From the IMG/VR virus record IMGVR_UViG_3300037258_001202, positions 1 to 38,718 of that record: a DNA stretch of 38,718 nt; one strand, 5' to 3'. The translations under genes were made by a program, and so were the position numbers. Positions 4,745 through 33,339 of the stretch are shown piece by piece. This DNA comes from a virus. How positions within the stretch are numbered: the stretch's first letter is position 1; every line of letters begins with the position of its first letter. Below the pieces are notes generated by a model. That model was not told where the DNA came from. It saw nothing but the letters and a program-made list of their open reading frames with translations, and did no database searches.

Positions 4745-7700
4745 CTACTGAAAATCGATCGTTGCCACGAGGTTGGCTAAGGTTTCGCTGCCCTGCGTCG
4801 TGCAGCGCAGGCTGTAGAGATCTCCGACCACCGCCGTGAAAGTGTGGGTGGTGTCGGTGCATTGGGTGCTCGTGCCGAGCGTGCAGGTCACCGCCTTGGC
4901 CACGCCGTTGTCGTAGAGCGTGCAGTCGCCGCTCGAAGAATTGACCCCGCCGGTCACCGCCTGGACGGCCAGGTTCTTGAAGACACCGGTGCGGTTGGCC
5001 AGGAACTCTGAAGTTGAAGTCGAGGAGGTCGCGGTGCAGGTGGTCGTCGGCGTGCCGAGCCCTGAAAGCGAGATCGTGCTCGAGGCCGTCGCGGTCCCGG
5101 TGCATTGCGCGCGCAGCGTGCTGGCGATGGTCTGGTTTTGCCAGGCCGGCTGCGTTGCGCCCATGACGAGGGCCTGCCCCTGGCTTCCCGCGGCCAGCCG
5201 CGCGGGCGCTCCGGAGGCGCCGCCCTGGATCATGTCGCCCACGCCGGTCATCGGATTGGTCAGCGTCCCGCCGTACCAGCCCAGCACGGCGATGTTGACG
5301 AGCGGGCCAAGCAGCGCGGCCGCCGGCTTCGTCGATCCGTCGCCGGGCAAGCCGCAATCGCCGAAGGTGGTTCCGACGGTTGTGCCGAGCGCGCCTTGCG
5401 AAGCTCCGCCCGTCTCCCGGCGCACCACCGTCTGATAGCCGGCGGCCGGCGTGGGAATGCCGGTGACCGTGTTGCAGGAGCTGCCGCCCAGCGTGGTCGG
5501 TCCCGTCGACGTGGTGACGTTGGCTGTGGCCGCCGAGATGGTCTGGTCGGTCAGCGAAAGCAGATAGACGCTGTAGGCGTAGCTGCCCGACTGCGACGGA
5601 CTCGATGTGATGCCGCTCGGCGTCGTCGGCGTGCTCGGCGTCGTCTCGGTATTGGCGCCGCTCGGAATGACCACCCTCCCAAGCGTGAATCCGCTGGTCG
5701 GCGGCGTCTGCGAGCTCGTATCGAAGCAGCCCTTCGATCCCGACGGCGAGGCCTCTATGAAGTCGGCCTGGGTCACGGTGCTGTTTGTGAAATAGCACGG
5801 CCCCTGCCCCGTGGTCTGCACCGCCGACTCATGCGACGCGCTGAGCACGTTATAAGAGCCTTGCTCGAGGATGCCCACCGGCACGGTCGTTGCGCCCACG
5901 GCCATCGCTTCCACGTTGCCGTCGGTCGCGTTGAGGTCCGCCGGCACAAAGGCCGCGGTCGCCGTGTGCGTCGAGTTCGGGTAATTGCTGCACTCGCCGA
6001 AGAGCGAGTTGCATCCTTGAATCGAAGTCGTCGCCACCTGGCCGCCGGCCGCGAGATAGTAGCCGAGCACCGGCTCGCCGTTGGTGTGCTTCACCGAAAA
6101 GAGGCCCTGCACCGTCGAGGGCACGTACACGTTGTAGGTCGCCGGCGTCGCCGTGATGCTGAACAGCTCGGCGTTCGTGGTCGCGACCCCCGTCGCGCCG
6201 CCGCCGATCGTCACCGCGCTCAGGCCCGCGTACTTGGCGTTGTTCGAGTTGACGTTTCGGATGCTGATGCCGTAGAGCGGGGAGCCGTGCGAGGCGTTGA
6301 CGACCACCGTCTGGTAGCAGCTTTCGAGAGTGATCCCCTGGATATGGAAATTCGGCGCATCCACCTGGACGGCCGCATTTGTTTCTGTCGCATTCCCGCC
6401 GCACTGCCCTGTGAGGTCGCTCACCTCGACAGCCCCGACTAGAGAAACGTCCGTTCCATAATTGAAGATTTGAGCCGCTGCATCGTTCAGGCCGGATTGC
6501 GCGGCGTAGAGGCCGCGGTATGGCCCGCTCTGTTGCGCGCCGCCGCCACCGCCCGAGAAAGCACCCTCCAGGTCATACGCGCGATAAGCGCTGGTGGAAA
6601 CGCCTACGGATGTGAACCTGCTGCCGTTTTGCCCGGAGTCGTTTTTGATGCCGGTGAGATGATCCACCGGATTGTTCGCGACGGTGACGGTCGGCCCGGG
6701 ATTCGTATCGGGTGCCAGCGGCGCAAGCGCTGCCCCGGAGATCCCGAAGTTCTCGATCACCGAGCCTTGCGTGTTGCAACCGTTGAGCGTGCCTTCCTGG
6801 CACCCCGTCGAAACCAGGGGCCACGCCGGCGGAAAGCCCGTCGAGGGCACCACGCAGGTTCCCAGGCCGCACGAGATCGACGGATTGTTCCACGGCGTCA
6901 GCCCGTCGAAGGTCAGTCCGTAGCCCGTCGCCCACGGCAGTTGCGCAATGTACGTTGCGCCCGGCGAAAACATTTCGATGTAGCTGCCCAGCTCGCTCAC
7001 TTCGCCGCCGGGGATCCAAATGGGCGGCGGACTCGTGCATGTCCCAGCGGTCGCCACGGTGATGGCGGTGATCACGCCGTTCACAATCGTCGCCGGGTTG
7101 TAGGTAGGCGCCACGCTGCACCAGGGCATCGTCGTTCCGGTCGGCGTGATTGGCGTTACAGTGCCGGAGTAGTTCGCGCCGCCCGCCAGGATCGTCACAG
7201 AGGCCACGCCCGTGCAGCCCACGGCCGGATAAGCGAGCGGATAGGGGCAGCCGTTCATCACCGGGATCGCCTGCGCGCCGTACCCGCCCACCGTCGATTC
7301 CAAATTCGCCGCGGCCGGGTTCACGATGCAGTTGGTCGGCCCCACCGCGCCCGAGTCGTAGATCAGCGCCGAGCCCATGTGCATGGTGTAGATCGCCCAG
7401 TTGAGCGCGTTCGTCATCGCCTGGCAGTGGTCGTTGGTCGCGGTGATGCCGGCGTGTTGCGGTGTCGGCCCGAATTCTTCCCACGCGTTCACGGTGGGGT
7501 AATTCGTATCCTGCAGCCCCGCGCCGCGCAGCGCGCCGGTCGCCGTGCCGCCGCTCGTCGGCAGGCCGCCCAGCGTCGCCCAATCCGATGGACTCGTCGC
7601 CGGCGTGTTGCCGGTGTTGTTGGCGATCAGCGAGACGTAGGCCACGCCGGCCGACGCCACCGAGTCGCCCTTCTGGTAGGTGGTCCCGCCGGCGTAGGCG

Positions 7701-7807
7701 CCCTGGTAGTTCATGGCGGCGCGCTGCGCTCGCAGAGGCATCAGCATGAACGCGAGCAGGAACGGGACGGCGCGGAAAACCCTGATTGTGACGGTGCGGA
7801 TACGCAT
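4745..7807 (-). CDS. Tail spike / receptor-binding protein with signal-like N-terminus
   Basis: 1020 residues. Residues 1-30 resemble a signal peptide (basic start, VPFLLAFMLMPL core, AQ end), which is odd for a virion protein. Residues 32-80 form a chitin-binding-like carbohydrate module (YQGAYAGGTTYQKGDSVASA... NTGNTPATSPSDWATLGG). The centre (about 340-570) is rich in Gly, Asn, Val and Ser with repeating short strands, as in parallel beta-helix spikes. Around 630-700 lies a beta module (GILEQGSYNVLSA, ADFIEASPSGSKG). The C-terminal 130 residues are Thr/Ser/Cys-rich beta structure, probably for trimerisation or host binding. An internal ATG (Met32, at 7714) could be the functional start but lacks a ribosome-binding site. 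Two segments are shared with small genes elsewhere (7768-7798 and 5902-5962). It follows the tail adaptor gene in the late operon. Confidence 0.8.
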   Translation of the reverse strand: MRIRTVTIRVFRAVPFLLAFMLMPLRAQRAAMNYQGAYAGGTTYQKGDSVASAGVAYVSLIANNTGNTPATSPSDWATLGGLPTSGGTATGALRGAGLQDTNYPTVNAWEEFGPTPQHAGITATNDHCQAMTNALNWAIYTMHMGSALIYDSGAVGPTNCIVNPAAANLESTVGGYGAQAIPVMNGCPYPLAYPAVGCTGVASVTILAGGANYSGTVTPITPTGTTMPWCSVAPTYNPATIVNGVITAITVATAGTCTSPPPIWIPGGEVSELGSYIEMFSPGATYIAQLPWATGYGLTFDGLTPWNNPSISCGLGTCVVPSTGFPPAWPLVSTGCQEGTLNGCNTQGSVIENFGISGAALAPLAPDTNPGPTVTVANNPVDHLTGIKNDSGQNGSRFTSVGVSTSAYRAYDLEGAFSGGGGGAQQSGPYRGLYAAQSGLNDAAAQIFNYGTDVSLVGAVEVSDLTGQCGGNATETNAAVQVDAPNFHIQGITLESCYQTVVVNASHGSPLYGISIRNVNSNNAKYAGLSAVTIGGGATGVATTNAELFSITATPATYNVYVPSTVQGLFSVKHTNGEPVLGYYLAAGGQVATTSIQGCNSLFGECSNYPNSTHTATAAFVPADLNATDGNVEAMAVGATTVPVGILEQGSYNVLSASHESAVQTTGQGPCYFTNSTVTQADFIEASPSGSKGCFDTSSQTPPTSGFTLGRVVIPSGANTETTPSTPTTPSGITSSPSQSGSYAYSVYLLSLTDQTISAATANVTTSTGPTTLGGSSCNTVTGIPTPAAGYQTVVRRETGGASQGALGTTVGTTFGDCGLPGDGSTKPAAALLGPLVNIAVLGWYGGTLTNPMTGVGDMIQGGASGAPARLAAGSQGQALVMGATQPAWQNQTIASTLRAQCTGTATASSTISLSGLGTPTTTCTATSSTSTSEFLANRTGVFKNLAVQAVTGGVNSSSGDCTLYDNGVAKAVTCTLGTSTQCTDTTHTFTAVVGDLYSLRCTTQGSETLANLVATIDFQ
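5902..5962 (-). repeat. 61-bp segment shared with the 35834-36166 gene
   Basis: This segment matches 36098-36158 (opposite strand) at about 54 of 61 positions. It encodes ATAAFVPADLNATDGNVEAM in the spike and ATAAFVPADIDATDGSVEAM in the small secreted protein. Most differences are at third codon positions, so the peptide has been kept under selection or exchanged long ago. Confidence 0.85.
7768..7798 (-). repeat. 31-bp imperfect repeat, tail-spike copy
   Basis: These bases match 32201-32231 at 29 of 31 positions, in the same orientation. Both copies encode the residues IRTVTI(R/K)VFRA near the N-terminus of their proteins: the tail spike here and the 71-residue protein beside the small terminase there. 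Confidence 0.85.
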
Positions 7808-8620: not shown

Positions 8621-8956
8621 ATGCAAATCATCAGGCGGTACCCGTTCGTCGGAATTTCGCTCGCGGTCGCCTGCGGGCTGGTGCTGGCGCACGTCGTCAA
8701 CGAAGCGCTGGATTACCTCTGGCTCAACTTCCTTTGGGATTTCCTAGCTCAGAATGGCTGGATGCTGGGCGACCTGGCCGCCGCGGCAGGCGTGCTTTAT
8801 CTCGTCCTCCGGCGCCGGCGCGGCATCCTGGCGTGGGCCCGCGGTCACATGAGATGGATCGCGGTCGGCGTCTTTTCTTTTTGGGCGATTTGTTCCCTGC
8901 TGATTCTTCTCAACGCCCATCGCTTCGTCGCCATGACGCCGCTACCTGCGCGCTGA
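8621..8956 (+). CDS. Three-TM membrane protein, moron-like
   Basis: 111 residues. Three hydrophobic segments are visible: VGISLAVACGLVLAHVVNEA (about 10-30), WMLGDLAAAAGVLYLVL (47-63) and WIAVGVFSFWAICSLLILL (79-97), the last two separated by the basic loop RRRRGILAWARGHMR. No family is recognised. It is a single plus-strand gene inserted between two leftward late genes, with its own promoter and operator, the pattern of a lysogenic-conversion (moron) gene such as a superinfection-exclusion protein; that role is inference. Its last 15 bases overlap the end of the convergent giant gene. ATG 8621 is chosen because earlier in-frame codons lie inside the promoter. Confidence 0.72.
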   Translation: MQIIRRYPFVGISLAVACGLVLAHVVNEALDYLWLNFLWDFLAQNGWMLGDLAAAAGVLYLVLRRRRGILAWARGHMRWIAVGVFSFWAICSLLILLNAHRFVAMTPLPAR

Positions 8957-11900
8957 CCCCGCCACCGCATCCCACACGTTCGGGCTCTCGACGTTGCCTC
9001 TCTGCACCTGGTTCATGTAGCGCAGCGGCTTCATCGCCTGCGTCGTTCCCGGCAGGCCGGCCAGGTCGCCGCCTACTTCGAGATAGTTCAGGCCGATCCC
9101 CTTCCAGTCCTTGTCGTCGCTCCCGCTCATCATTTCCTGCGTCGCCTTGGTCCCTTTGCTGAGCACGTTCATCAGCGGGTTCTTCACCTCGCCGTCGCTC
9201 TCGAGGGCCGATGCCGCGTCCCGCAGCCCGGGCACGGTGTCCGCGGCGAACAAGAGCGCGCGCTTCGCTGCCCACAGCCCCTTGTTCTCGCCATCCTTCG
9301 GGCCGTTCCCGCTGACGATGCCGCCCAGCAGCGCCGGCGCAAGCACGGAGAGCGCGAGCCCGTAGCTGAGCTTGCCGACCGCGCTCGGGCTGCCGGCGCC
9401 GCCGTTCTGCCTGAACTGGTGGCCGATGTCGCGCACCTGGCCGTAGATCCCGTTGTGAAACGAATAGAACATCGTCATCAGCTTGGTCAGATCGTTGTTG
9501 CGCATGATCGGCGGCAGGTCTTTCGGCGCGGCCGAGCCCAGGCCCAGGCGCACCGCGCTGTCGGCCGCGTGCATCGCCAGGTTCTGCGCCTGGTCCTCGG
9601 TCAGGCCTGCGTGCTCCTTGAGCCCGTCGCGGTAGACGGAAAGCCACAAAGGGAAACTCAGAACGTGATCGGTGTACTTGATCGACACATTGCCGAGCCG
9701 CGCCACGCTGCGCTTGATGCCGGGGTCGCCCCGGAGCACCGCGCGAATGTCGCGATCGAGGTTGTCGCCGCGCGCCGCCATCTCGTTCGGGGACAGGTCT
9801 TTGATCTGCTGCGTCATCTCGGAAGGGTGCGCCATGAAGTCCACCAGCGCCTGCGCGTACGATCCCGGGTTCGTGCTCAGCAGCATGCGCGGCGCGTGGG
9901 TCCACTGCAGCAGCGAAGTCGATATCTTGTACGAGAGCGTGGCCAGCGTCAGGTTGGTGCGCAGCGACCGCATCATCCGCGAGAAGTCGCCGAGCCCCTG
10001 CACCGCGCTGCCGTTGCGGTCGTTGACAATCGTGCGCAGCCATGGCATCATCTTCTCCTCGTAGCCCTCCCCCAAACTCTGGCGCATGGTCGAGCGAATC
10101 TGCGGATCGAGCAGCAGCTTGTTGGCCGCCAGCATGAACTCGCGGTGCGTGATGTCCTTGATCACCTTCGCCGTGTGCTGGGTCAAAACTTGTTCATAAT
10201 CGAGCTGCAGCGGTCCGCCGAATCCGGTGCGGGCCTGCATGTTGCCCCGCGAGGTGGCGGCGCGGCCGTAGCCGGCTTCCATCAGGTTTTGCGCGGTCGT
10301 GCCGGCGTCCTGCTGCGCGCCGCGGCTCCCGTAGCGCGGGTCCATCACGATCGGGTAGTAGCCGCCGTCCAGGTGCATCTTGGTCCCGTCCTGGAGCACC
10401 AGGTCGAGCGGGGTCGGCTTGACCATCACCGGCGGCAGCCCGGTGAGCCGCCGTTCGAGATCGGATTGCGCCTGGCCCAGCGGCTTCAGCGCGTTCCATC
10501 CGTCCTGCACAAACTGCCACTCTTCGCGCGTCAGCATCCCCGCGATCCGGTGGATTGCGTCCGGGTCCCAGCCATGCGCGGCGAACGTCTTCTGAAGTCG
10601 ATCGAGGTTGCCGTCGTTGCCCATGTTGAAGGCCATCGACACCAGGTCGTGCCGCGTGACCGTCTCGGGGATTCCGTCCACCGTGGTCTTCTCGAACATC
10701 TTCGCGCGCTGCTCTTTGGGCAGGTTCTCGATCGCGTCGCCGAGCTGCTCGGTGACCTGCTCCTGCAGCTTGTACTCGTTGCCCTGGGAATCGGCGGCGA
10801 GGTTCCACAAGTTGTCATGCCACGGACCCGTCTTGCCGCCATCCAGCCACTCGATCAGGCGTTCGGTGCGCATCAGCAGCGCATCGCCGCGCTGCGCGTA
10901 GTCCGCGATCTTCTCGCCCAGCGTCGCATTGCCTTTCAGCACCCGCGTCGGCTTGGCCGGCAGCGACTCGTGGGCCTGCGCCTCCATGTTCGCGATCGCG
11001 GCCGAGAACTCGACCCGCTTGCCGTTCACTTCCATGCCCAGCTCGAGCGACGCCAGCTTTCGGATGTTGATCAGCGCGTCATGCACCGCGCGGATCTCCG
11101 CGACCGGCGCGTTGCGGTAGTTGACCGTGCGCGCTTCGTTCAAAATGCCCGCATCGATCGCCGGCTCTTTGCCCTGCTCGTACTCGCTCGCCGCCCATTC
11201 GCCGAGCGATCTTTCGCCGGGCGCAACCTGGGGCCCCAGCCCGTACCGGCCCAGGATGCGGTTGAACTGGTCGCGGTAGTCTCCGCCGGCCAGGCCCAGC
11301 TTCTGCTGCGCGGCCGTTTTCTGCATCCGCTTCGCATAGGCCTCGAATTTGCCGATGTACTGCCTGGCCTCGGTCGCCTCGCGAAACAGGAAGTGATTCA
11401 TCAGCTCTTTGTGCTTCGCGTTCGCCGCGGCCTGCGCATCTCCCTTTTGGAGCGCCTCGAAGGCCTCGCGCGAGTACTTGCGGCTGGCGTCGAGATAGCG
11501 CGTCGGCTGCAGGTCGGCCACGGATTTCTTTTCAACCATCTGCTGCGCGGCTTCCCGGTAGCTCGCGATCGGCGCCACTTCAATCGCGCGCAGCGCTTCC
11601 CGCTCGCCGGTCATGCCGGAGACCTTCTGCTTCAGTGCCATCAGCTCCGCGTGCAGCCCTTTGGCCCGGTTGTCGTTTTCGAGGGCGATCCGCGCCTGGT
11701 CGTCGAGCGTGCCGTCGTAGCGGATGTCGCCATGCTTGGCCGTCATGTAGCCGCGGGTCGCCGTTTCAATGGCTGCGCTCCGCCGCGGCGCCACTTCGAG
11801 CGCCCGCATCATCTCTTCGGCCGAGTGGAAGCCGAACACCTCGGCCACGATCTCCGGGTCTTCGCCGCCCTCGTTGCGGTAGAGCCCGGGATGCAGTCTC

Positions 11901-14900
11901 TGCAGCTCCTTCACGCGCTCTTCGCCAAACTGCTTGGCCAGGTCCTCGCGGCTCAGGGTCAGCTCCGTGCCGTCGTCGAGCGCGCCCCTGCGCAGCGCGC
12001 GGATCGCCGAGTACTCCGGCCGCTGGTCCACGTCGGCCGTCACCGCCTCGCGCACGTTTTGTTCTTCGTTGCGCCAGGATTCCGATCGCGCGCGCACCGC
12101 GGCCTCGTTGAGCCGGCCCAGGATGTCGCTCTTGGCCTGCTCCACGGACATGTTGTTGTCGCTGGCGTATTTTTGGAACTGCTCGTCCGTCCAGCCGGCG
12201 TCTTCCGCGCTCGTGAACAGCTTCGGCCCGGCTTCCGTCTCCGCCCGGTTGACGCCGTCCTCGGCCGCATACAGCCGGTCGAAAACCCCGCGTATCTCGT
12301 CGGAGAGATTGACGCCCAGGTCGGAGGCCTTTTTGTAGACGCTGCCCAGCCAGATGGCGAAGCGCTGGAACGCGCCCTTGAGCCCGGCCGAGGGAGCTTT
12401 GCCCTCGCGCAGGTATTGCTCGTTGGCGCGCGCCCAGGTCTCCTGCTGCTCGCGCGTCAGCGGCTCCCCATCCTTCGCGCCGAGGAAGTCGAGCACTTTT
12501 TGGTAATCGCTTTTGAGGGTGTCGCTGGCGCCGTCGCGCTTGCTCAGGTCGCCGAGGATCTTCAAGTAAGCGTGAGCCGGCTCATGGACGAACGTGCTCA
12601 GGTCGCCAATCTTGGTCTTGCCAATTTCGTAGGTGCCGTCAGGAAGAACGCGGAACCAGCCGCGCGGGCCGTCTTCGGAGGACTGGTTTAGACTCGCGCC
12701 TGCTTGGCCGCCGTGTGCCGCGTTTTGATCGGAGCTTCGAGGTACGCCTTCATTACCTTGCGCGTCTGCTCCTGCCGAGGTGTCGGGGGCTTTGGCTGCT
12801 GCTTCTTCGAGGCCATCGTGATACTCCTGTTCTGACAGCTTACTCCCAAAAGCGTGGTTGAACGCATCGAAAGCGTTCGCCTCGCCAAACATTCTTCCTT
12901 GCCCGGGCAGGTTTGCATCCGAGTCGCGGGCGAACTCGTCGAATGACTTCCGCACGTCGTTCGGTTTGGCGTCCAGGGCGCGGATCATCGCGTCGACGAG
13001 CGGGTTGCGTTCGCCGTCGAACATCGAAGTTTGGCCCAGGCGCAAATCGACGGTGCTGCCGCTGCGCTGGATCGCTCCCAGCTCTCCAACCGCATCGCGG
13101 ATAGCCGGGAGCAGGTTCCACTCGTCAGGCCGCGATGCGAAGGACGCGATCGAACCAAGCGACCGCTCCAGCTTATTGATAACGGATTTCGGCGCGGAGT
13201 CCATCAGCCGCGGGTCGTCGATCACGCTTCCCATCAGAGCCCGTTCGACGAATGTCTTGCCTTCCTCGCTCAGGCCTCCGGAGGCCGCGTCGACGAACTG
13301 AGGCCGCTCGCGATCGGTGATCACACCGTCAGAGGTAAGCATTTTCACGATGCCGGCGCCGTGCTTGGCCATCGCCTCGCGCAGCGTGGAGTCGTCGGCC
13401 TGCATCATGCCGGCTATATTGCGGAGCGTGTCCTGCTTGAGGTTTTTCCCTGCGCTGACCGCGCGCTCGGAGACTCCCATCGCGCCGGTCATCGACTTAT
13501 TGAGTTCCGATCCAAGCCGCCGCGCGTCGTCCGGGGTCGCCGGCGTCTCTACCTGCCGGACCAGGACGGGCTTTTTCATGGCCTCGACCTGTTCCGGCGT
13601 GAATCCGTAAGTGGCAGCTTGCTCCTTCAGCGCCGCTTTGTAGGCCGATCCATCCTTCTCGTACAGCCGCTGCGTGCTCATGGCGCGGGAATTGCCGCCG
13701 AGCACAGTTCCATCGGGGGTCACGACCGGGGGGCCGTTCACCGCGTCGGGGTTGGTGTTCACCGTGTAGCGCGGATCGTAATTCTGCGCCTGCTGAATCA
13801 CGCGCGCCTGGGCTTCCTTCGACGTGTCGTAGGCGCGCTCCTGCAATCCTTCCGGGTAGGCCGGGTTTTTGGCGAAGGTGTGCGCATCGTGCGACGGCAC
13901 CAGGGAATCGGCCTCGACCAGCCGGTACTTTGCCGGAAGCTCGCGCGCCGAGGTCAGCAGCGTCGTCGCCTTTCCGTCGTGCCCGGTGAGGGCGCCGCTC
14001 ACCTCGGTGATCTCATTGCCAAAATGGACTTTCTTACCGCCCTCCCATAGCTCGACGGGGACGAGGCCCAAAGATGGCGAGGATTGGACGCCGACCACAG
14101 TCCTTTTTTCGAACTTGCCCGCATCCTTTCCTTCCTCGTATCTGACGCCCACCCTGCCGGCGTCCACGGCGGAGATGCTTTTGCTGCCGGCGCCGCGCGT
14201 CTGAAACTCGCCCAGCTTGTTTGCGTCCTCAGGGGTGACGTAGAAGGTTCGTTCCGAGGTTGGCTGAGGGCCTTGCTCCGCGCCTCCATGCTCCGGCCGG
14301 AACGCCTTATCCCTGGTCGTGGTTCCGTCTTCGTTTACTTTGTAAACGCTGCCTTTCGCCGTCGTGAACTCCGGAGCCTTGAACTCGATTGGGTTGGCCG
14401 CTGTATTGACATGTGCAGACATGTCATTACCGCCGGTCTCCGGCGCCTCCCCCACCGTCACCTTCGGGTTGTAGAGGTTCAGCAGCTCGCTCGGCTTCAT
14501 GCCGGCGTTGCGCGCCAGGTTCGAGTAGGCGTTCGCGTCCTTGGTGGCCAGCGTCTCGGCTACCTCGGGTGTCTCGCCGGCGTCGGTGTACCGCTGCCGG
14601 ATCTGCTCCTTCACTTCCTGGTATTCGGGCGTTGCCGCCGTCTCCGCGTCCGCCGCGGCCGTATCGGCCGCCAGCTTCGCCGCGCCGCCGCCTGTAGCCC
14701 ATTGCTCCAGCTCCTGGAGGCCTTCCTGGTGCTGCCGTGCCGTCAGCCCGGTGGATGGATCCACAATGTCGCCGAGCAGCGCCTTCTGGTGCTCAGGGTC
14801 GAGCTTCGACAGGAAGTCGGCCGGCGGGATCTCCACGTCGCCGCCCGACAGGTGCGCTTCGGCATAGTTGGCCGCGCCGAGGCCGGCAGCGACGGCGCCC

Positions 14901-16198
14901 GGGTCCATGCCCTTTCCATTGAAGTAAGAGTTGAACTGATCGACCGGAACGCGCAGACTCTGATCGCCCGCGAAGATGGTTTGCATCGCTTCGTTGAACT
15001 TCTCCGGCGATCGCGCGCGCAGCTTCGATTGCTCGGCCGCCTCGACGGCGTCGCTCAGGTTTGCGGCGAAGCCCCCGCTGAGTCCCAGGTGCATGCCGGC
15101 CTGCATGGCCGCGCCCTGCACCATGGCGGCGGGTACGCCCTTCGCCCACGGCTGCCCCGTCACCACGTTCTGCCCGATCTGCCCGGTTGCGCCTGTGGCG
15201 CCGCCCAGGCCGAGCGAGGTCAGCAACGGATTGTCGCGCAGCAGCGGGACAACATCGGTGGCTCCAAAGGCGGCGTTCGGCAGCGCGCTGATCGTGGCCA
15301 CCCGGTTCGCCGCCAGGCGCGCGGCATAGTCGCCCGCGCCCGATCCCGCCACGGCCGTGTAAGTCTTTCCGGCCTGGTCCGCGTCGAACATTCCGCCCAC
15401 GGTGAGGCCGGTGAGCACCTTCGCCGCGGTCTGGCCGATGCCCAGGGTCCTCGCCACCAGGCCCGTGCCGCCCGTGGCCAGGACCGCCGGAATCATCGGG
15501 GCCACATTTTTCATCAGCCAGTCGAATTGATTGCCGGTGTCGGCTTCGCCGTTCGCGTAGACGCCGGCGTTCGCGGGGTCGAGGTTCGATTCAATCCTCT
15601 GCAGCAGGTTTTGTTTGCTCGCTCCGTCGCCGTGCCAGCCGAGGAACGAGCCGACGTTGCCCACCATCCCGGCCGCGCCGCCCGCAATGTCCGCCGCGCC
15701 CCGGGTCAGCGGCCCTTCCCAGAAATTCTGTCTGAGCTGCTCCCGCGAAATCGCGCCGCCCATCATCCACTGGCCCAGGGCGAGCAGCTTGTCGCCGGCG
15801 TTCTCGCTCCAGGTCGGCGTGCGCGCGCCCATGGACGCGCGGTTCTGTTCAATGCCGCCCAGCCGCTGCACTTCGTCCACTCCGGACACCGCGGCGTTGT
15901 CGGGATTTGAAACCCACTCCGCGGTGCGCGGGAAGGTGGCCAGAAACTTTGGATAGTCGATCGAGTGGACGGCGGCCGCCTGCCGCACCTGCTGCTGGTT
16001 GCCGTTCGAGACCGCGGGAGGCACGCCCGTCTGCTTCTGCAGCTTGAGCAGGTTCGCGTACTGGTCGGGGTCCTGCGTCGCGCCGTAGGCGATCGCGCCC
16101 TGCAGCGCGCCGGCCTGCGCGTCCGCCGGCTGGCTCGCATCGATGGGCGCGCCGATCGGAATCGCGTTGCTGAAGTCGAGAGTGACTGGATCGGCCAT
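8942..16198 (-). CDS. Giant polyvalent ejection protein (DdrB-like ParB, metallopeptidase)
   Basis: 2418 residues, in the position of T7-gp16-like proteins that enter the cell with the DNA. Residues 1-230 are a soluble N-terminus; about 230-370 hold several hydrophobic glycine-rich stretches that could insert into membrane. Around 620-740 lies a conserved-looking beta module (TSERTFYVTPEDANKLGEF...). Residues about 755-1000 are a DdrB-like ParB-superfamily domain (LVEADSLVPSHD, VNTNPDAVNGPPVVTPDG, LGGNSRAM). A low-complexity linker follows, then a zincin-like metallopeptidase with H1205-EPA-H1209 in STFVHEPAHAYLKIL and the downstream block ETWARANEQYLREGKAPS. The rest is long helical polyvalent-associated sequence. 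DdrB of phage P1 belongs to a system that protects incoming DNA from restriction, so anti-defence activity is plausible but unproven. Its ATG overlaps the upstream stop (TAATG). Confidence 0.8.
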   Translation of the reverse strand: MADPVTLDFSNAIPIGAPIDASQPADAQAGALQGAIAYGATQDPDQYANLLKLQKQTGVPPAVSNGNQQQVRQAAAVHSIDYPKFLATFPRTAEWVSNPDNAAVSGVDEVQRLGGIEQNRASMGARTPTWSENAGDKLLALGQWMMGGAISREQLRQNFWEGPLTRGAADIAGGAAGMVGNVGSFLGWHGDGASKQNLLQRIESNLDPANAGVYANGEADTGNQFDWLMKNVAPMIPAVLATGGTGLVARTLGIGQTAAKVLTGLTVGGMFDADQAGKTYTAVAGSGAGDYAARLAANRVATISALPNAAFGATDVVPLLRDNPLLTSLGLGGATGATGQIGQNVVTGQPWAKGVPAAMVQGAAMQAGMHLGLSGGFAANLSDAVEAAEQSKLRARSPEKFNEAMQTIFAGDQSLRVPVDQFNSYFNGKGMDPGAVAAGLGAANYAEAHLSGGDVEIPPADFLSKLDPEHQKALLGDIVDPSTGLTARQHQEGLQELEQWATGGGAAKLAADTAAADAETAATPEYQEVKEQIRQRYTDAGETPEVAETLATKDANAYSNLARNAGMKPSELLNLYNPKVTVGEAPETGGNDMSAHVNTAANPIEFKAPEFTTAKGSVYKVNEDGTTTRDKAFRPEHGGAEQGPQPTSERTFYVTPEDANKLGEFQTRGAGSKSISAVDAGRVGVRYEEGKDAGKFEKRTVVGVQSSPSLGLVPVELWEGGKKVHFGNEITEVSGALTGHDGKATTLLTSARELPAKYRLVEADSLVPSHDAHTFAKNPAYPEGLQERAYDTSKEAQARVIQQAQNYDPRYTVNTNPDAVNGPPVVTPDGTVLGGNSRAMSTQRLYEKDGSAYKAALKEQAATYGFTPEQVEAMKKPVLVRQVETPATPDDARRLGSELNKSMTGAMGVSERAVSAGKNLKQDTLRNIAGMMQADDSTLREAMAKHGAGIVKMLTSDGVITDRERPQFVDAASGGLSEEGKTFVERALMGSVIDDPRLMDSAPKSVINKLERSLGSIASFASRPDEWNLLPAIRDAVGELGAIQRSGSTVDLRLGQTSMFDGERNPLVDAMIRALDAKPNDVRKSFDEFARDSDANLPGQGRMFGEANAFDAFNHAFGSKLSEQEYHDGLEEAAAKAPDTSAGADAQGNEGVPRSSDQNAAHGGQAGASLNQSSEDGPRGWFRVLPDGTYEIGKTKIGDLSTFVHEPAHAYLKILGDLSKRDGASDTLKSDYQKVLDFLGAKDGEPLTREQQETWARANEQYLREGKAPSAGLKGAFQRFAIWLGSVYKKASDLGVNLSDEIRGVFDRLYAAEDGVNRAETEAGPKLFTSAEDAGWTDEQFQKYASDNNMSVEQAKSDILGRLNEAAVRARSESWRNEEQNVREAVTADVDQRPEYSAIRALRRGALDDGTELTLSREDLAKQFGEERVKELQRLHPGLYRNEGGEDPEIVAEVFGFHSAEEMMRALEVAPRRSAAIETATRGYMTAKHGDIRYDGTLDDQARIALENDNRAKGLHAELMALKQKVSGMTGEREALRAIEVAPIASYREAAQQMVEKKSVADLQPTRYLDASRKYSREAFEALQKGDAQAAANAKHKELMNHFLFREATEARQYIGKFEAYAKRMQKTAAQQKLGLAGGDYRDQFNRILGRYGLGPQVAPGERSLGEWAASEYEQGKEPAIDAGILNEARTVNYRNAPVAEIRAVHDALINIRKLASLELGMEVNGKRVEFSAAIANMEAQAHESLPAKPTRVLKGNATLGEKIADYAQRGDALLMRTERLIEWLDGGKTGPWHDNLWNLAADSQGNEYKLQEQVTEQLGDAIENLPKEQRAKMFEKTTVDGIPETVTRHDLVSMAFNMGNDGNLDRLQKTFAAHGWDPDAIHRIAGMLTREEWQFVQDGWNALKPLGQAQSDLERRLTGLPPVMVKPTPLDLVLQDGTKMHLDGGYYPIVMDPRYGSRGAQQDAGTTAQNLMEAGYGRAATSRGNMQARTGFGGPLQLDYEQVLTQHTAKVIKDITHREFMLAANKLLLDPQIRSTMRQSLGEGYEEKMMPWLRTIVNDRNGSAVQGLGDFSRMMRSLRTNLTLATLSYKISTSLLQWTHAPRMLLSTNPGSYAQALVDFMAHPSEMTQQIKDLSPNEMAARGDNLDRDIRAVLRGDPGIKRSVARLGNVSIKYTDHVLSFPLWLSVYRDGLKEHAGLTEDQAQNLAMHAADSAVRLGLGSAAPKDLPPIMRNNDLTKLMTMFYSFHNGIYGQVRDIGHQFRQNGGAGSPSAVGKLSYGLALSVLAPALLGGIVSGNGPKDGENKGLWAAKRALLFAADTVPGLRDAASALESDGEVKNPLMNVLSKGTKATQEMMSGSDDKDWKGIGLNYLEVGGDLAGLPGTTQAMKPLRYMNQVQRGNVESPNVWDAVAGSARR
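12688..12816 (-). CDS. Possible embedded 42-residue basic protein
   Basis: An alternative-frame reading inside the giant gene: MASKKQQPKPPTPRQEQTRK, then a basic helix ending TAAKQARV. AGGAG lies at good spacing before the ATG at 12816. The host frame here encodes a low-complexity interdomain linker (about residues 1130-1175), which would tolerate an overlapping gene. GC-rich phage DNA often gives such frames by chance, so this is a weak call. Confidence 0.22.
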   Translation of the reverse strand: MASKKQQPKPPTPRQEQTRKVMKAYLEAPIKTRHTAAKQARV

Positions 16199-18360: not shown

Positions 18361-19077
18361 CTATCCTCCGCCCGCGTAGTAGCCGTACATCATCTTGGCC
18401 TGCTGGCTGGTGTTCCACTGCTGGCCCACGCTCGCGGCCGTCGTCAGCAGGCTTGAAGTCATCGCCGAAAACGGGCTGATCGAATTCGCGGACCGGGTCG
18501 CGTTGGCCGCCGAGGTGCGGTCCAGGAGAGCTTGATTGGAAAAGTTGGTGGCCTGCGTCCGGTCCTGGGCCGCGGCGCGCGTCGCGTTCGCGTCGATGGT
18601 GTAGGCGTTGATGTCCTTCACGATGTTCTGCGACGCGGTGATGTCCTGCGCGCTGCCCTGGCCGAGCCGGATGCCGTGCGCCGCCATGGTCGCCGTGGTC
18701 GAGGCCGTCGCCTGGCCGGCCGCCATGGTCATGTTGGCGATCTGGCTCTTGCCCGCCTCCAAAGTCGATTGCGCCGAGTACTCGGCCGAGCGGGAATTGA
18801 TCGCCGCGATGTCCGCCTGGTAGCCGAGGTTCAGCGCCTGGCTCTTGTCCTGGTACCGCTGGCTCTCCGCCGCATAGTAGCCGCCGACCGCGGAGTTGAT
18901 GCCGCCCATCACGGTCATCATCATGCCGGCGTTGCGCATGGTCGCGGCGCCGGTCGCGGCGCTCACCTGGCCCGCGCTCATGTTCGGGGTCAGGGTCGCG
19001 GTCGTGTGGCCGTTGATGCCGAAGAACTCCTGGATGCCGTCCCAGCTGCTGGTCAGAAGTGTGTTGATCTCGTCCAT
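18361..19077 (-). CDS. T7 gp14-like internal virion protein
   Basis: 238 residues. A small-residue hydrophobic stretch (MRNAGMMMTVMGGINSAVGGYYAA, about 47-70) is followed by a long alanine/glutamine helix (SQRYQDKSQALNLGYQADIAAINSRSAEYSAQ..., ...AGQATASTTATMAAHGI). This is the layout of the smallest T7-type core protein (gp14), which forms the outer-membrane part of the ejection channel. The order (tail tube B, gp14-like, gp15-like, gp16-like) supports the call. The ATG lies two bases after the TAG that ends the readthrough frame of the tail tube gene, showing that translation up to that TAG was originally linked to this gene. Confidence 0.72.
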   Translation of the reverse strand: MDEINTLLTSSWDGIQEFFGINGHTTATLTPNMSAGQVSAATGAATMRNAGMMMTVMGGINSAVGGYYAAESQRYQDKSQALNLGYQADIAAINSRSAEYSAQSTLEAGKSQIANMTMAAGQATASTTATMAAHGIRLGQGSAQDITASQNIVKDINAYTIDANATRAAAQDRTQATNFSNQALLDRTSAANATRSANSISPFSAMTSSLLTTAASVGQQWNTSQQAKMMYGYYAGGG

Positions 19078-19079
19078 CG

Positions 19080-19301
19080 CTATCCCCCTAGTGCCGCTTC
19101 GACCGTCAGCCCGACCACCGTCAGGGGCAGCGGGTCCGTTTGCGTGATGACCACCTGGCCGGAGGTCGTCCAGCTCGCCGGGATGACGATTTCGATTTCA
19201 TCGGTCACCAGGCGCGGCGGCGAACCGTAATTTTCGGTGGTGCGCTGCTTGTACTGGACCAGGGCGCCGGCCGCCGGGCCCGCGAGGATCGAGCTCGACT
19301 G
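19080..19301 (-). pseudogene. Detached C-terminus of tail tubular protein B after ochre codon
   Basis: In the same frame as the tail gene, 73 sense codons follow its TAA (19304-19302) and end in TAG (19082-19080). They encode QSSSILAGPAAGALVQYKQR ... DEIEIVIPASW ... ITQTDPLPLTVVGLTVEAAL and a final GG. The block with W, then Q-x-DPLPLTV, then a terminal GG is the usual C-terminus of gp12-like tail proteins. There is no plausible start codon at the front of this stretch, so it is not a separate gene. Confidence 0.8.
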
Positions 19302-22130
19302 TTAGAGCCTCACCCAGCATTTGCTGATATTCTTCACGCGTCCCTGGCCCATGGCGTCGACCTGCGCAACCAGGGGCAGCGTCTCGATCGTGGGGCTGAA
19401 GGGCAGCCCGATTGTCACCAGCGTGCACGGCCTCTGCACCATCACCGCGCCGCCCGTCACCACCTGCTGCGGCTGCACGGCGCCGTCGCCGAGGATCGCG
19501 ACCGTCTCGCCCTCGAGCCAAGTCAGGCCGCCGATCGTCGGCCGCGCCCAGGCCCAGCTCGTGGAAGCCGCGAAGGTGACGCCGGTGGGAATCGGCGAAA
19601 CCGGGAGAGCGATGGCCGCCTCCGTCGATGAGGTGCTCAGCAGGTTGAAGTCGTACGCGTTGCCGTCGTCGCCGGTCAGCACCAGGTAGCTGCCCACGTC
19701 CGTTTGCGGCGGGTAGGCAAACATCGCGGCTGAAGACGCGAGGTTCCATACCCCGGCTAAGTCGGGCGGCTGGAGCCCCGTCGTGGCCGTCACCGTCGTC
19801 GCCGTCCGGTTGGTCCCGTCGAAGGTCGCGCCGGCATCGACAAAAAAACAGTTCTGAAGCGCGCCGTAGTTGCGCGTGGACATGCGCTCGATGTAGTTCA
19901 CCGCGGCCCCGTTCACCGTGCGGCTGATGATCGCGTAGAGCCGGTCCTCGACTCCTTCCGCCACGCAGGCGATCGATTGAAACGCGCCGTCTGTCACGTG
20001 ATGGTGCCAGGCGCCGATCTGCTGCTCCGGGATGTAGGTCAGGCCCAGCAGGTCGCCGTTCGAGCTCACAAACCAGACCACCTGCCAGGCGCACTTCATA
20101 AAGGCCTGGTCCGCGATCGTGAGATTGTCGAACAGGTGCGCTGCGCGCAGCGAGATGTCGCCGGTCACGTAGCCGCCGATCTGCCACTGAAAGCCCATCT
20201 CGCGAATGTGGCCGCCGCGCGCCGCGCAGTAGATCAGGGAGTTGTTGACGATCGTCGGCTGCACGTTCGAGGCGCCGATGTAGGACTGCGGCCGCGGGTC
20301 GATGGTCGAGGGCGTGATCACGTCGGTGTTGATCGGGCTCACGCTCATCTCGGTCGAGCTCGTCAGCAGGATCAGTTGCAGGAGCGGCACAATGTGCTCG
20401 ATGGTGGACATCTCGCGCACCGCGATGCCGATCGCCACGCGGTCGGTGTCCTGGATCGGCAGCGAGTAGCTCATGTCGCTTTCCGTGCCGCTCTTGGTCA
20501 TCCAGAAATTTTGCGGTTGCGCGGTCGTGCCGCCGAAGCAGCGCCGCTGCTGGAAGTAGGAGACCGCGCCCGGATAGTTTCCCGTCGAGTTGAACACCGG
20601 ATCGAACTGCGGCGGCGTGATCGACATGTCCACCGCGATGTTGTTGTCGTTGAAGGTGAGGGTCGTTGCGAGTGTCGTTCCGATGTAGCCGAAGAGGCCG
20701 TTCAGCTCTCTGTAAACGTAGTACTGATAGGCGTTCGGCGAGGCTTCCCAGGTGATGGTGTTGAAGCTGCCGGTCACGTCGAGATTGTTCAGCACCGAGA
20801 CCGTCTCCGAGACCGCGCTCTGCTGGATGCCGTCCGAGGACACCGCCGTCACCACGTAGTTGTTGGTGATGTTGAAGATCTTCGAGCCGAACTGAAGGGT
20901 CGCGCCGGCGGTGTAGGGCGTGTCCCAGCCGGTTGAGTCGAGCACGTTGCCGCTATAGTCCATCACCGTCAGCTCGTCCGGGATCAGGTTGCCGGAGCCG
21001 TCGACGGGCACGCTGTTCACCAGGTAGAAGCCGTCGAGCACCGTCGCCACCCCGCCGATCGTCACCGTCAGCCCCTTGATGTAAATCGGGTCGCCCATCG
21101 CGAGCGTATGGTTTGACACTGTCGTGAACAGCGCCGGGTCCGCCGTCGAGATCGAGGCCACCTGCGCCAGGTAGCCGGGGCTGTCGGTCACGGCCACGCC
21201 GGTCGGCGCGGCCAGCGCCTGGCCGAAAACGATGCCCGCGAAGGTCCAGGTTTCCGCGCCCAGCCGGCGCAGCTCCATCGGAGGATAGTTCGGATGCGTC
21301 AGCGTCATCACGTCCGCCGATTGCACGTAATGGATGGCCATCAGGTCGGCGGCCTGGTAGGCGTTTGGGATCTCGTAGGTCAGGTCCGAAGGCAGCTCGT
21401 AAAAGACCGGGCACGGCGGGGCGTCGGAGTCGAGCGCCACGTCGGGGGAGCTGGTGGTCGGCGTGGGGCCGCCAGGGCCACCCGTAGGCGCGTACCAGAC
21501 CGAGCCGCTGAGGGAGGCGAGGTCCCCGGCCGAGTAGCTGCGGTGCGCATAGATATTGCCCGCGCCGGCGGCGGTGGTCGCCACGGGCGAGCTCGTCGCC
21601 GGGTCGATCAGCTTGATTGTGTCCGCGTCGACAACCTGGACGTTGTACACCTTCCAGTCGACCAGCCCCGTCGGCAGGAAATAGGGAGCATAGGGCGGCG
21701 GCCCGATGAGGGGTCCGGCGCCGAACATCACCGGCTCGCCTCCCAGGAATCCGTGAGCCGTCCAGGTCACCACGCAGGGGTTCGCGATGGTGGCAGTCAC
21801 GATCACCGCCGGCGTGAAGGCCGTCTGCGTCGCCGAGTACTCAAGCGTCGCGCCCTGCGTGTGGAAGCGGAAGTAGCCGGCGCCGATCTCGATCACCACG
21901 GTCTGCGTCGTCGAGTAAGTGAACGGGATCAGCCGCGCTTGTCCGTTGTTCTTGGTCGTGTTGACGTATTCGAAGCCAGGCCGCTTCTCCGCCGGCCCGA
22001 TCGGCGTCGCGATCATGTTCTCGATCGACGCCGCCCCCGACTGAAACTTGCCATCGTCGATGCGCCCGAACATCTCCGGGGAGAGCTCGCCGCCTGAGAA
22101 CGAGGGTTTGAAGACTTTCGTGCTCGCCAT
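19302..22130 (-). CDS. Tail tubular protein B (T7 gp12-like), truncated
   Basis: 942 residues up to a TAA; the frame stays open for 73 more codons (see 19080-19301). The N-terminus FKPSFSGGELSPEMFGRIDDGKFQSGAASIENMIATPIGPAEKRPGF is the signature of gp12-like tail nozzle proteins. About 300-500 hold a fibronectin-like insertion (APTGVAVTDSPGYLAQV, ITWEASPNAYQYYVYREL). The core continues with SYFQQRRCFGGT, MSTIEHIVPLLQLILLTSSTE, GGHIREMGFQW and TIGLPFSPTIETLPL, the conserved approach to the C-terminal beta domain. The protein should build the nozzle below tail tube A. As written it lacks its last beta strands. ATG at 22130 follows tail tube A's stop closely. Confidence 0.85.
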   Translation of the reverse strand: MASTKVFKPSFSGGELSPEMFGRIDDGKFQSGAASIENMIATPIGPAEKRPGFEYVNTTKNNGQARLIPFTYSTTQTVVIEIGAGYFRFHTQGATLEYSATQTAFTPAVIVTATIANPCVVTWTAHGFLGGEPVMFGAGPLIGPPPYAPYFLPTGLVDWKVYNVQVVDADTIKLIDPATSSPVATTAAGAGNIYAHRSYSAGDLASLSGSVWYAPTGGPGGPTPTTSSPDVALDSDAPPCPVFYELPSDLTYEIPNAYQAADLMAIHYVQSADVMTLTHPNYPPMELRRLGAETWTFAGIVFGQALAAPTGVAVTDSPGYLAQVASISTADPALFTTVSNHTLAMGDPIYIKGLTVTIGGVATVLDGFYLVNSVPVDGSGNLIPDELTVMDYSGNVLDSTGWDTPYTAGATLQFGSKIFNITNNYVVTAVSSDGIQQSAVSETVSVLNNLDVTGSFNTITWEASPNAYQYYVYRELNGLFGYIGTTLATTLTFNDNNIAVDMSITPPQFDPVFNSTGNYPGAVSYFQQRRCFGGTTAQPQNFWMTKSGTESDMSYSLPIQDTDRVAIGIAVREMSTIEHIVPLLQLILLTSSTEMSVSPINTDVITPSTIDPRPQSYIGASNVQPTIVNNSLIYCAARGGHIREMGFQWQIGGYVTGDISLRAAHLFDNLTIADQAFMKCAWQVVWFVSSNGDLLGLTYIPEQQIGAWHHHVTDGAFQSIACVAEGVEDRLYAIISRTVNGAAVNYIERMSTRNYGALQNCFFVDAGATFDGTNRTATTVTATTGLQPPDLAGVWNLASSAAMFAYPPQTDVGSYLVLTGDDGNAYDFNLLSTSSTEAAIALPVSPIPTGVTFAASTSWAWARPTIGGLTWLEGETVAILGDGAVQPQQVVTGGAVMVQRPCTLVTIGLPFSPTIETLPLVAQVDAMGQGRVKNISKCWVRL

Positions 22131-22133
22131 GGT

Positions 22134-22814
22134 CTACCTGCCCGCCATCCACGACACGCTCTGGCGCACCTCGATGCGCCGCTGGTTCGCATCCGAAGTC
22201 TTGGCCTGCACGTTGAACGTCTGAAACTTGGTGAGCATCGCAGCCGACACCGTCGTGCCCTCGTCGCCCTTGATGATCGGCCCCGCCAGCATCGAGGCCA
22301 GCAGGTACGAGAGCGCCAGCACAAACAGCGGGCTGAAGGTGGTGGGGTCGGCGGCCGCGATGGTGTAGCGCAGCACCGCGTTGCACACGTTGGTGAGGAT
22401 GATCTGGTGGCCGTTGCCGTCCTGCTCGACCGAGTAGGGCTGGGGCATGTAGAAATTCGCGGCCGGATTCGCGAAGTCCGGCTGCGGCGAATCCCACTGG
22501 CGCCTTTCGCCGAAGTTCGCGGAGTAGTCGTCGAGCGCGCACTCGGGCAGCACCGAGATCAGGTTGATCACATTGGCCGGGTAGGCATAGGCGAACCGCC
22601 AGCTCGTGCTTGGGTTCGAGACTTCCGCCGGCGACGAGCGCACGGTCGCAAATCCCCAGTTGGCCATCTCCAGGATGGCGTTCAGCGCGAGCGGGAAGAA
22701 TGTTGCGCAGTAGCCGGCCTGCACCGATCCGTCGGGCGGGTCGATCGAGGTCACGTTGGCCGTATCCCCGATGTGCGAGAGTGCGGTGTTACAGATATCG
22801 ACAACCGAGGCCAT
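22134..22814 (-). CDS. Tail tubular protein A (T7 gp11-like)
   Basis: 226 residues. It opens with SVVDICNTALSHIGDTANVTSIDPPDGSVQAG, the family signature, followed by LALNAILEMANWGFATVR, WRFAYAYPANVINLISVLPE, and VLRYTIAAADPTTFSPLFVLALSYLLASMLAGPIIKGDEG. This protein forms the adaptor ring between portal and nozzle. The ATG at 22814 has GGAGAGGG upstream and is preferred over an in-frame ATG ten codons earlier that lies in the terminator region. It directly precedes the tail tube B gene. Confidence 0.88.
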   Translation of the reverse strand: MASVVDICNTALSHIGDTANVTSIDPPDGSVQAGYCATFFPLALNAILEMANWGFATVRSSPAEVSNPSTSWRFAYAYPANVINLISVLPECALDDYSANFGERRQWDSPQPDFANPAANFYMPQPYSVEQDGNGHQIILTNVCNAVLRYTIAAADPTTFSPLFVLALSYLLASMLAGPIIKGDEGTTVSAAMLTKFQTFNVQAKTSDANQRRIEVRQSVSWMAGR

Positions 22815-22834
22815 GGTCCCTCTCCGGGGTGGTG

Positions 22835-22871
22835 AAAAAAACAAAGGGCCGGAGCTGGTTGGCTTCGGCCC
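22835..22871 (-). terminator. Intrinsic terminator after the capsid module
   Basis: On the minus strand, GGGCCGAAG (22871-22863) pairs with CTCCGGCCC (22854-22846) at 8 of 9 positions. It is followed by TTTGTTTTTTT. It lies between the 56-residue gene and tail tube A, so it would reduce tail transcription relative to capsid transcription. Confidence 0.85.
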
Positions 22872-23597: not shown

Positions 23598-24662
23598 TTA
23601 GCTGATCTGTGACTCGGTCGCGAGGATCTGGTCGACGGTCAACACCGGGACGCCCATGAACATGAGCTGGCCGCCCTGGATGCCGGTGCCGCTGCCCGCT
23701 ACCGAGCCTGCGCTGACCTTGCCGTACTGGTTGACCGCGTCGGTGAAGCTGAGAGCGTTCTGCGACTTGTCCAGCGCGCCGATCGAGAGCATCTCCTTGA
23801 CCGTGCGGCTGGCCAGGAAGGTCGGCGTGCCCATGCCCATCGAGGGAATGCGCGCGAGAGCCTTGATCATCAGCTTGTTGATCCAGGTGGATGCGGTGAT
23901 GGCCTGGGTGCCGGTCTGCCCGACCAGGTCCGCGGTCAGGATGTTGGCGATGCGGACCGCGTAGCGCCAGTCCTTCACGTGGAGGCCGTACTTCCACTGC
24001 CAGCGTTCTGCGTAGGCGCGGAAGCGGTTGTTCGAGCTGTCGAAGGCATCGATCTCGCCCAGGTCCTGCTGCAGCAGGCCCGCCTGGGAGCCCTTGGGGT
24101 AGATGCCGGTCACGGTGTTCTCGCCCCAGACGACCAACCAAACCGAGGTGTTGGTCGCGCCCGTGCCGCCGGCGTCGATGATGTTCTGCCCGGAGGTCGC
24201 GCTCTTCGAGCTGTAGCGCGGCGCCAGGCCCAGGATGCCGTCCTTTTGCGAGGCCGTGTTCCCGTAGACGACCGATTGCGCGAACTGCTCGTTCATCGCT
24301 TCGATGAACGCGAGGCCTTCGGAAAGCCGGAAAGCAGCGGTGTTCCCGTTCAGGTCGGCGAGGTCCTTGTCGATTTCGTTGCGGCCTTCGAGGATCGCGC
24401 ACACGTCTTCGATGGTGGCGCGGCCGGACTTTGAAATCTGGACGCCCTTGTAGAACTCGCGGAAGCCTACGGTGGGAAGGCCGACGCGCACCACGGCCTT
24501 GTGGCCGGTGGGCAGGTTGCCTTCGATGAAGTTCATGTAGGGAATCAGCTCGTTGCTCTGGTTGAGAAGCTCGGCGACCACGGCTACCTTGCCGTCGGGG
24601 CCGAAGCTCTTTGCGATGTCGATGAGGGTGTTGTGCCCGGAATTCAGGGGGAGGACTGCCAT
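23598..24662 (-). CDS. Major capsid protein, gp7-like (HK97 fold)
   Basis: 354 residues. The opening (LNSGHNTLIDIAKSFGPDGK, VAELLNQSNELIPYMNFIEGN, GHKAVVRVGLPTVGFREFYKGV) and the middle (EDVCAILEGRNEIDKDLADL, QSVVYGNTASQKDGILGLAPRY, RFRAYAERWQWKYGLHVKDWRYAVRIANI) match the gp7-type major capsid proteins of podoviruses such as BPP-1 relatives. It forms the icosahedral shell. It lies directly after the scaffold gene, with AAGGAG upstream of its ATG, and before the cement gene. The protein is complete and shows no anomaly. Confidence 0.88.
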   Translation of the reverse strand: MAVLPLNSGHNTLIDIAKSFGPDGKVAVVAELLNQSNELIPYMNFIEGNLPTGHKAVVRVGLPTVGFREFYKGVQISKSGRATIEDVCAILEGRNEIDKDLADLNGNTAAFRLSEGLAFIEAMNEQFAQSVVYGNTASQKDGILGLAPRYSSKSATSGQNIIDAGGTGATNTSVWLVVWGENTVTGIYPKGSQAGLLQQDLGEIDAFDSSNNRFRAYAERWQWKYGLHVKDWRYAVRIANILTADLVGQTGTQAITASTWINKLMIKALARIPSMGMGTPTFLASRTVKEMLSIGALDKSQNALSFTDAVNQYGKVSAGSVAGSGTGIQGGQLMFMGVPVLTVDQILATESQIS

Positions 24663-32024: not shown

Positions 32025-32240
32025 TTAGCCCACGTGCACAAAATTGAATTCGCCGGGGCCGACCCGAACCATCTTGTATTCATCGGGGGCGATCGCTTCG
32101 ATCTTCTCCACGTACTGGGCGAGGATCGCTTTGACGCCCTCTGCGGTGAACTGCCGGTGCTTTCCGGCTATGGTCCTGTGCGTGTACGAGTCCTTATTGC
32201 CGGCGCGGAAAACCTTGATTGTTACGGTGCGAATGATCAC
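32025..32240 (-). CDS. 71-residue protein with VTIKVFRA N-terminus
   Basis: Begins (GTG) IIRTVTIKVFRAGNKDS and continues HRTIAGKHRQFTAEGVKAIL and APDEYKMVRVGPGEFNFVHV. Small basic alpha/beta protein, function unknown. The GTG at 32240 is chosen because GGAGGAG lies just upstream and it overlaps the TGA of the small terminase gene as GTGA. The first 31 bp after the start are nearly identical to the start of the tail spike gene. It lies between small and large terminase, so it may assist packaging; this is inference. Confidence 0.65.
   Translation of the reverse strand: MIIRTVTIKVFRAGNKDSYTHRTIAGKHRQFTAEGVKAILAQYVEKIEAIAPDEYKMVRVGPGEFNFVHVG
32201..32231 (-). repeat. 31-bp imperfect repeat, terminase-region copy
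   Basis: Matches 7768-7798 at 29 of 31 positions in the same orientation, and lies at the 5' end of the 71-residue gene. See the tail-spike copy. Confidence 0.85.
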
Positions 32241-32763: not shown

Positions 32764-32796
32764 GTTTGATTGATTTGAATTCACACATAATCAAAC
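32764..32796. repeat. AT-rich inverted repeat at the 3' end of recombinase 2
   Basis: Arms GTTTGAT (32764-32770) and ATCAAAC (32790-32796) are 19 bp apart, with a second partial TGATTTGA copy beside the left arm. The patch is strikingly AT-rich in GC-rich surroundings and overlaps the recombinase stop codon. It is a possible recombinase-binding (att-like) site or a weak hairpin. Confidence 0.45.
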
Positions 32797-33339
32797 CCGC
32801 CCGGAAGGCCCGAAGGAGCCTGTCACCGCCGCCGATGCCTCCTCGTCGCTCACCTTCAGATAAGCGCCGGTCGACGAAAGAGATTTGTGTCCGAGGTACT
32901 GGCGCACGTTTTCAATTCCAGCGTTTTTAATACTTTGCATCGCGATGCTGTGCTTCAGGATGTGCGGATGCCCTTTGCGTTTCGCAATGCCGGCTTGGGC
33001 CGAGTACTTCCTCACCAGGCGCCAAAAATGAATGCGCGAGAGCGGGAAAATTCTTTGATTCGGATGCATGCCCGCGGCGTAATCAATCAGCTCTCGACGC
33101 AGATCGAGGAGCGGATCGGCGTGCTCGGGCAGCGGCTGCGTGGTCTTCATCGAGCCCTTCAGGCGCGCAACTGTTACACAGCCGTCAGCGATCGAAGCAG
33201 CCGTCAAACCAATAACTTCGCTCGCGCGCAGGCCGTGCCAGTAGCCGACAAGGATCATCAGCCAGTCGCGTTTCCTCGCGGCCTTCGCGGCCGCAAGCAG
33301 AGCTAGCAATTCGGTTTTTGAAAGGGCTTCCACAATCAA
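32791..33339 (-). CDS. Minimal tyrosine recombinase (catalytic domain only)
   Basis: 182 residues, the size of FimB/FimE-type recombinases, lacking an N-terminal core-binding domain. Catalytic positions: R38 (WHGLRASEVIGL), K61 (VARLKGSMKT), H126-x-x-K129 (HPHILKHS), H151 (LGHKSLSST) and Y160 (GAYLKV). Lysine at 129 stands where arginine is usual, a variant that may lower or alter activity. The start is uncertain: TTG at 33339 or GTG at 33333, neither with a good ribosome-binding site. A GTAAC/GTTAC inverted pair (33345-33349 and 33363-33367) lies upstream. It may act in DNA inversion, resolution or excision beside the full-size integrase at the left end. Confidence 0.85.
   Translation of the reverse strand: MIVEALSKTELLALLAAAKAARKRDWLMILVGYWHGLRASEVIGLTAASIADGCVTVARLKGSMKTTQPLPEHADPLLDLRRELIDYAAGMHPNQRIFPLSRIHFWRLVRKYSAQAGIAKRKGHPHILKHSIAMQSIKNAGIENVRQYLGHKSLSSTGAYLKVSDEEASAAVTGSFGPSGRV

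What the first reader, a model, noticed from the sequence alone, without database searches (positions are those of the whole stretch)
19080..19304. In-frame ochre codon cuts 73 conserved codons from tail tubular protein B
The frame reads ...KCWVRL, TAA, then 73 sense codons to a TAG that lies two bases before the next gene's ATG. The detached part ends in the DPLPLTV...GG block normal for gp12-like tail proteins, and it has no start codon of its own. So the gene was longer. Either a single-base nonsense mutation inactivated a nozzle gene (defective prophage or sequencing error), or the codon is read through. The context TAA-CAG-TCG partly resembles the stop-CAR-YYA readthrough motif, which makes recoding worth a test, although TAA is usually the tightest stop.
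Basis: partly seen in the sequence, partly recalled or inferred. Interest (0 to 1): 0.8.

Follow-up and report, generated by a model that had tools for sequence, protein, structure and literature searches.

The report
Private stop codon in phage nozzle gene
One uncultured BPP-1-like phage record carries a single private stop codon near the end of its tail-nozzle gene; all 174 relatives compared have an ordinary amino-acid codon there, so this is an ordinary recent nonsense mutation or a sequencing error, with no sign of a new way of decoding.

Summary
On the minus strand, the tail-nozzle gene (tail tubular protein B, PHROG 376, bbp13 of phage BPP-1) reads 942 codons from 22130, meets TAA at 19302-19304, then runs 73 open codons to TAG at 19080-19082. 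The 73 residues are the true end of the protein. PHROG 376 continues through them, and they align to the end of the solved nozzle 8ck1. The stop falls inside a predicted beta-strand, in the part that in T7 gp12 forms the platform docking on the adaptor.

The stop is private. All 174 relatives covering the column have a sense codon there, mostly Phe, Tyr or His; none has an internal stop in about 141,000 aligned codons, and none ends there. It is the only stop inside a conserved gene of the window. TAA properly ends the major head, protease and M23-domain genes, so the code is standard. The detached part is still under normal purifying selection. The CAG-TCG context is coding sequence shared with relatives that have no stop, and the downstream RNA fold is unremarkable.

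Best reading: a very recent nonsense mutation in a temperate phage, or a consensus error in a metagenome assembly. Without reads I cannot separate the two. Recoding is very unlikely. Low interest.

The parts
19305..22130 (-). 942-codon open part of the tail nozzle gene (tail tubular protein B; bbp13 of BPP-1)
   Evidence: PHROG 376, E 3e-165; tblastn to BPP-1 Bbp13; PDB 8ck1 nozzle, T7 gp12
19302..19304 (-). private in-frame TAA
   Evidence: sense codon in all 174 relatives that cover the column
19083..19301 (-). 73 conserved codons after the stop: C-terminal end of the nozzle protein
19080..19082 (-). TAG, the position where relatives also end
   Evidence: relatives end at the same ...VGLTxExxxGG motif
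18361..19077 (-). next gene, internal virion protein (bbp12-like), intact
   Evidence: PHROG 418
22134..22844 (-). upstream gene, tail tubular protein A / adaptor (bbp14-like), intact
   Evidence: PHROG 394
23598..24662 (-). major head protein gene ending in TAA, used as control that TAA terminates
   Evidence: four of six relatives end at the identical residue with TAA or TAG, the other two within 1-4 residues

Best explanation
The TAA is a private one-codon nonsense change in an otherwise normal phage nozzle gene. As written, the record encodes a nozzle protein lacking its last 74 residues. Those residues complete the C-terminal beta-barrel (the platform that docks the nozzle on the adaptor ring in T7 gp12), so such a phage would be expected to make no functional tail (inferred). 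The change is either a very recent mutation, tolerable while the phage is a prophage, or an error in the metagenome consensus. No readthrough mechanism is needed. Shown: the stop, its absence in relatives, the conservation of the tail, the standard use of TAA elsewhere. Inferred: loss of function, recency. Not decidable here: mutation versus sequencing error.
For: All 174 relatives covering the column carry a sense codon (75 Phe, 44 Tyr, 20 His, others), and none has an internal stop in 141,475 aligned codon cells (first set). Every relative not cut by its contig end reaches the same C-terminus. It is the only stop inside a conserved coding frame of the window (the other listed stops lie outside gene bounds or in antisense shadow frames, and the apparent case at 32025-32027 is the end of a separate small gene). 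TAA ends three other conserved genes where relatives also end (16198, 23598, 24676). pN/pS of the detached tail against the three closest relatives (0.28-0.49) is like the upstream part (0.28-0.41) and like relative-to-relative values, so the tail has not decayed. About 2.9% of all single substitutions in this gene give a stop. The stop falls inside predicted strand 933-945 and five more strands follow.
Against: No reads and no second record of the same species were available; the closest relatives are about 78-80% identical in DNA and a pattern scan for the same site found nothing. So fixation of the stop in this lineage together with efficient suppression by an unknown host cannot be formally excluded; continued purifying selection is also what readthrough would predict.
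Confidence: 0.93

Rival explanations
1. Programmed or suppressor-dependent readthrough of the TAA makes a mixture of short and full-length nozzle protein.
For: Tail still conserved; frame open to a normal end; context TAA-CAG-TCG partly matches CAR-YYA.
Against: No relative shares the stop. The CAG/CAA-YYN context follows a sense codon in 44 of 174 relatives, the full CAR-YYA in 13, and the identical CAGTCG in 9, so it is only the conserved Gln-Ser coding sequence. No unusual RNA fold after the stop (z -1.0). No tRNA gene in the window. A hexameric nozzle has no obvious use for a truncated subunit. Readthrough is rare in bacteria, and the E. coli cases confirmed in PMC5373646 were at UGA.
Confidence: 0.03
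2. The phage reads TAA as a sense codon throughout (code reassignment).
For: None beyond this single codon.
Against: TAA terminates the major head, protease and M23-domain genes at the conserved end; no other conserved gene has an in-frame TAA; no suppressor tRNA found in the window.
Confidence: 0.005
3. The protein naturally ends at VRL, or the tail is made as a separate polypeptide from an internal GTG.
For: Three internal GTG codons exist in the tail.
Against: No relative ends at VRL. The nearest GTG is 32 codons after the stop, and the residues in between are as conserved as the rest. The break falls in the middle of a predicted beta-strand.
Confidence: 0.02

Closest known systems
Bordetella phage BPP-1 Bbp13 (tail protein), genus Rauchvirus
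   Same: Same gene order (adaptor bbp14, nozzle bbp13, internal virion protein bbp12, bbp11, bbp10) and homologous along the protein
   Different: Bbp13 is 681 aa with no internal stop; the window's gene is longer by inserted domains and carries the TAA
PDB 8ck1 tail nozzle of Carin 1 phage; T7 gp12 nozzle (6r21)
   Same: Sequence match to 8ck1 over residues 513-1016, including the 73 post-stop residues near the end of 8ck1; fold match to 8ck1 and T7 gp12
   Different: Those genes are uninterrupted in the solved virions
Phages with reassigned stop codons (TAG as Gln, genetic code 15; PMC9523058)
   Same: An in-frame stop in a conserved structural gene
   Different: There the reassigned codon recurs in many genes; here one TAA in one gene, and TAA ends other genes normally

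Membership tests
Podophage tail nozzle / tail tubular protein B (PHROG 376) | Sequence match along the whole profile | tested here: met
   Upstream part 1-637 (E 3e-165), post-stop part 640-711 of 712 (E 5e-14)
Podophage tail nozzle / tail tubular protein B (PHROG 376) | Gene between adaptor (tail tubular A) and internal virion protein | tested here: met
Podophage tail nozzle / tail tubular protein B (PHROG 376) | Uninterrupted reading frame to the conserved C-terminus | tested here: not met
   TAA at 19302-19304. The gene is a family member by descent; the lesion bears on whether it works, not on its origin
Programmed stop-codon readthrough | Stop conserved between relatives with conserved coding after it | tested here: not met
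   0 of 174 relatives have a stop at the column
Programmed stop-codon readthrough | Context or RNA structure tied to the stop | tested here: not met
   Context shared with sense-codon relatives; fold z -1.0
Programmed stop-codon readthrough | Extended protein detected | not testable with these tools
   Needs mass spectrometry of virions or infected cells
Stop-codon reassignment | Same stop codon recurs inside several conserved genes and does not end genes | tested here: not met
Defective prophage | Several damaged genes | tested here: not met
   No other stop or frame break in conserved genes; a single recent lesion remains possible
Sequencing or assembly error | Reads disagree with the consensus at the site | not testable with these tools
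   No reads held; no second record of the same species found

The most novel reading that the evidence does not exclude
This phage's host efficiently reads UAA through (suppressor tRNA or weakened release factor), and the phage has come to depend on it for full-length nozzle, so tail assembly would be tied to a host decoding state.
Probability: 0.02. Interest if true: 0.7.

Novelty: already known. Interest (0 to 1): 0.06.

Why it matters
It matters little biologically: it is an ordinary private nonsense change in one record. It is a useful reminder that single stops in metagenome phage records need relatives and reads before recoding is proposed. If readthrough were real, it would be an unusual case of ochre suppression in an essential virion part.

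Tried and rejected
A pattern scan of viral contigs for the same site with any codon at the stop found no second record of the species. The first all-frames scan for other in-frame stops was swamped by antisense shadow frames in this GC-rich (65%) genome; restricting it to the dominant frame solved this. A possible second TAA in the terminase (32025-32027) turned out to be the end of a separate small upstream gene. An apparent private Asn-to-Ser change seven codons before the stop suggested an error cluster, but Ser occurs there in ten other relatives, so it was dropped. RNA fold after the stop: nothing unusual. DNA-damage artefacts as the source of a false base were considered but cannot be tested without reads.

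Full report
What is there. The minus-strand gene from 22130 reads 942 codons to a TAA at 19302-19304, then 73 further sense codons to a TAG at 19080-19082, two bases before the ATG of the next gene at 19077. The window is a virus record from IMG/VR, held as a single contig of 38,718 bases, 65% GC.

What the gene is. The upstream part matches PHROG 376, tail protein, over profile positions 1-637; the detached part matches the same profile at 640-711 of 712. Its neighbours are a tail tubular A/adaptor protein and an internal virion protein, the order found in Bordetella phage BPP-1 (bbp14, bbp13, bbp12). A sequence search of the PDB matches the solved nozzle 8ck1, with the post-stop residues aligned to its last residues, up to 828 of 830. 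An AlphaFold2 model of the frame read through the stop (mean pLDDT 77.5, moderate confidence, 50-78 over the tail) matches 8ck1 and T7 gp12 by Foldseek. In the model the stop lies inside strand 933-945, and five strands follow it. In T7 gp12 the C-terminal domain is the platform jelly-roll that contacts the adaptor (PMC6702177). Loss of these strands would therefore be expected to prevent nozzle folding or docking; this is inference by homology.

Is the stop shared? No. In 174 loci from viral contigs, phage records and bacterial genomes that cover the column, the codon is sense in every one (75 Phe, 44 Tyr, 20 His and others), and no internal stop occurs in 141,475 aligned codon cells (first set). 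All relatives not cut by their contig ends finish at the same C-terminal motif. Many of these loci are close to one another, so 174 counts records, not independent lineages.

Is there wider recoding? Translating the window against relatives, this TAA is the only stop inside a conserved gene; an apparent case before the terminase is a separate small gene's end. TAA ends the major head, protease and M23-domain genes at the position where relatives also end. ARAGORN finds no tRNA gene. The RNA after the stop folds like its shuffles (z -1.0). The CAR-YYN context follows a sense codon in 44 of 174 relatives and the identical CAGTCG in nine, so it is plain coding sequence.

How old is the stop? The tail differs from its three closest relatives with pN/pS of 0.28-0.49, against 0.28-0.41 for the 300 columns upstream and similar values between relatives. 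A tail untranslated for long would have drifted, so the stop is recent, is an error, or is read through. With the stop private and the other signs of readthrough absent, the first two are far more likely. About 2.9% of random single substitutions in this gene create a stop, so neither needs a special cause.

Verdict. Ordinary: a recent nonsense mutation or a consensus error in a known nozzle gene. The split between these two needs the reads. Readthrough is kept at about 3%.

Noticed in passing
1-906 (+) and 32794-33339 (-): Two integrase-like genes in one record: PHROG integrase at the left end, cut by the record's edge, and a Pfam phage integrase domain protein next to the packaging genes, which is unusual beside BPP-1's single annotated integrase.
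   Followed up: partly
4745-7807 (-): A 1020-codon open frame in the tail-fibre position with no match in the relative contigs compared and only a marginal PHROG match; probably a fast-evolving receptor-binding or fibre protein.
   Followed up: partly
4067-4435 (-): Small protein with a Tlde1/YkuD-like (L,D-transpeptidase-like) domain, perhaps a lysis-related enzyme.
   Followed up: no
13229-14434 (-), inside the 2418-codon gene 8942-16198: A stretch without similarity to relatives inside an otherwise conserved giant protein, a variable insert.
   Followed up: no
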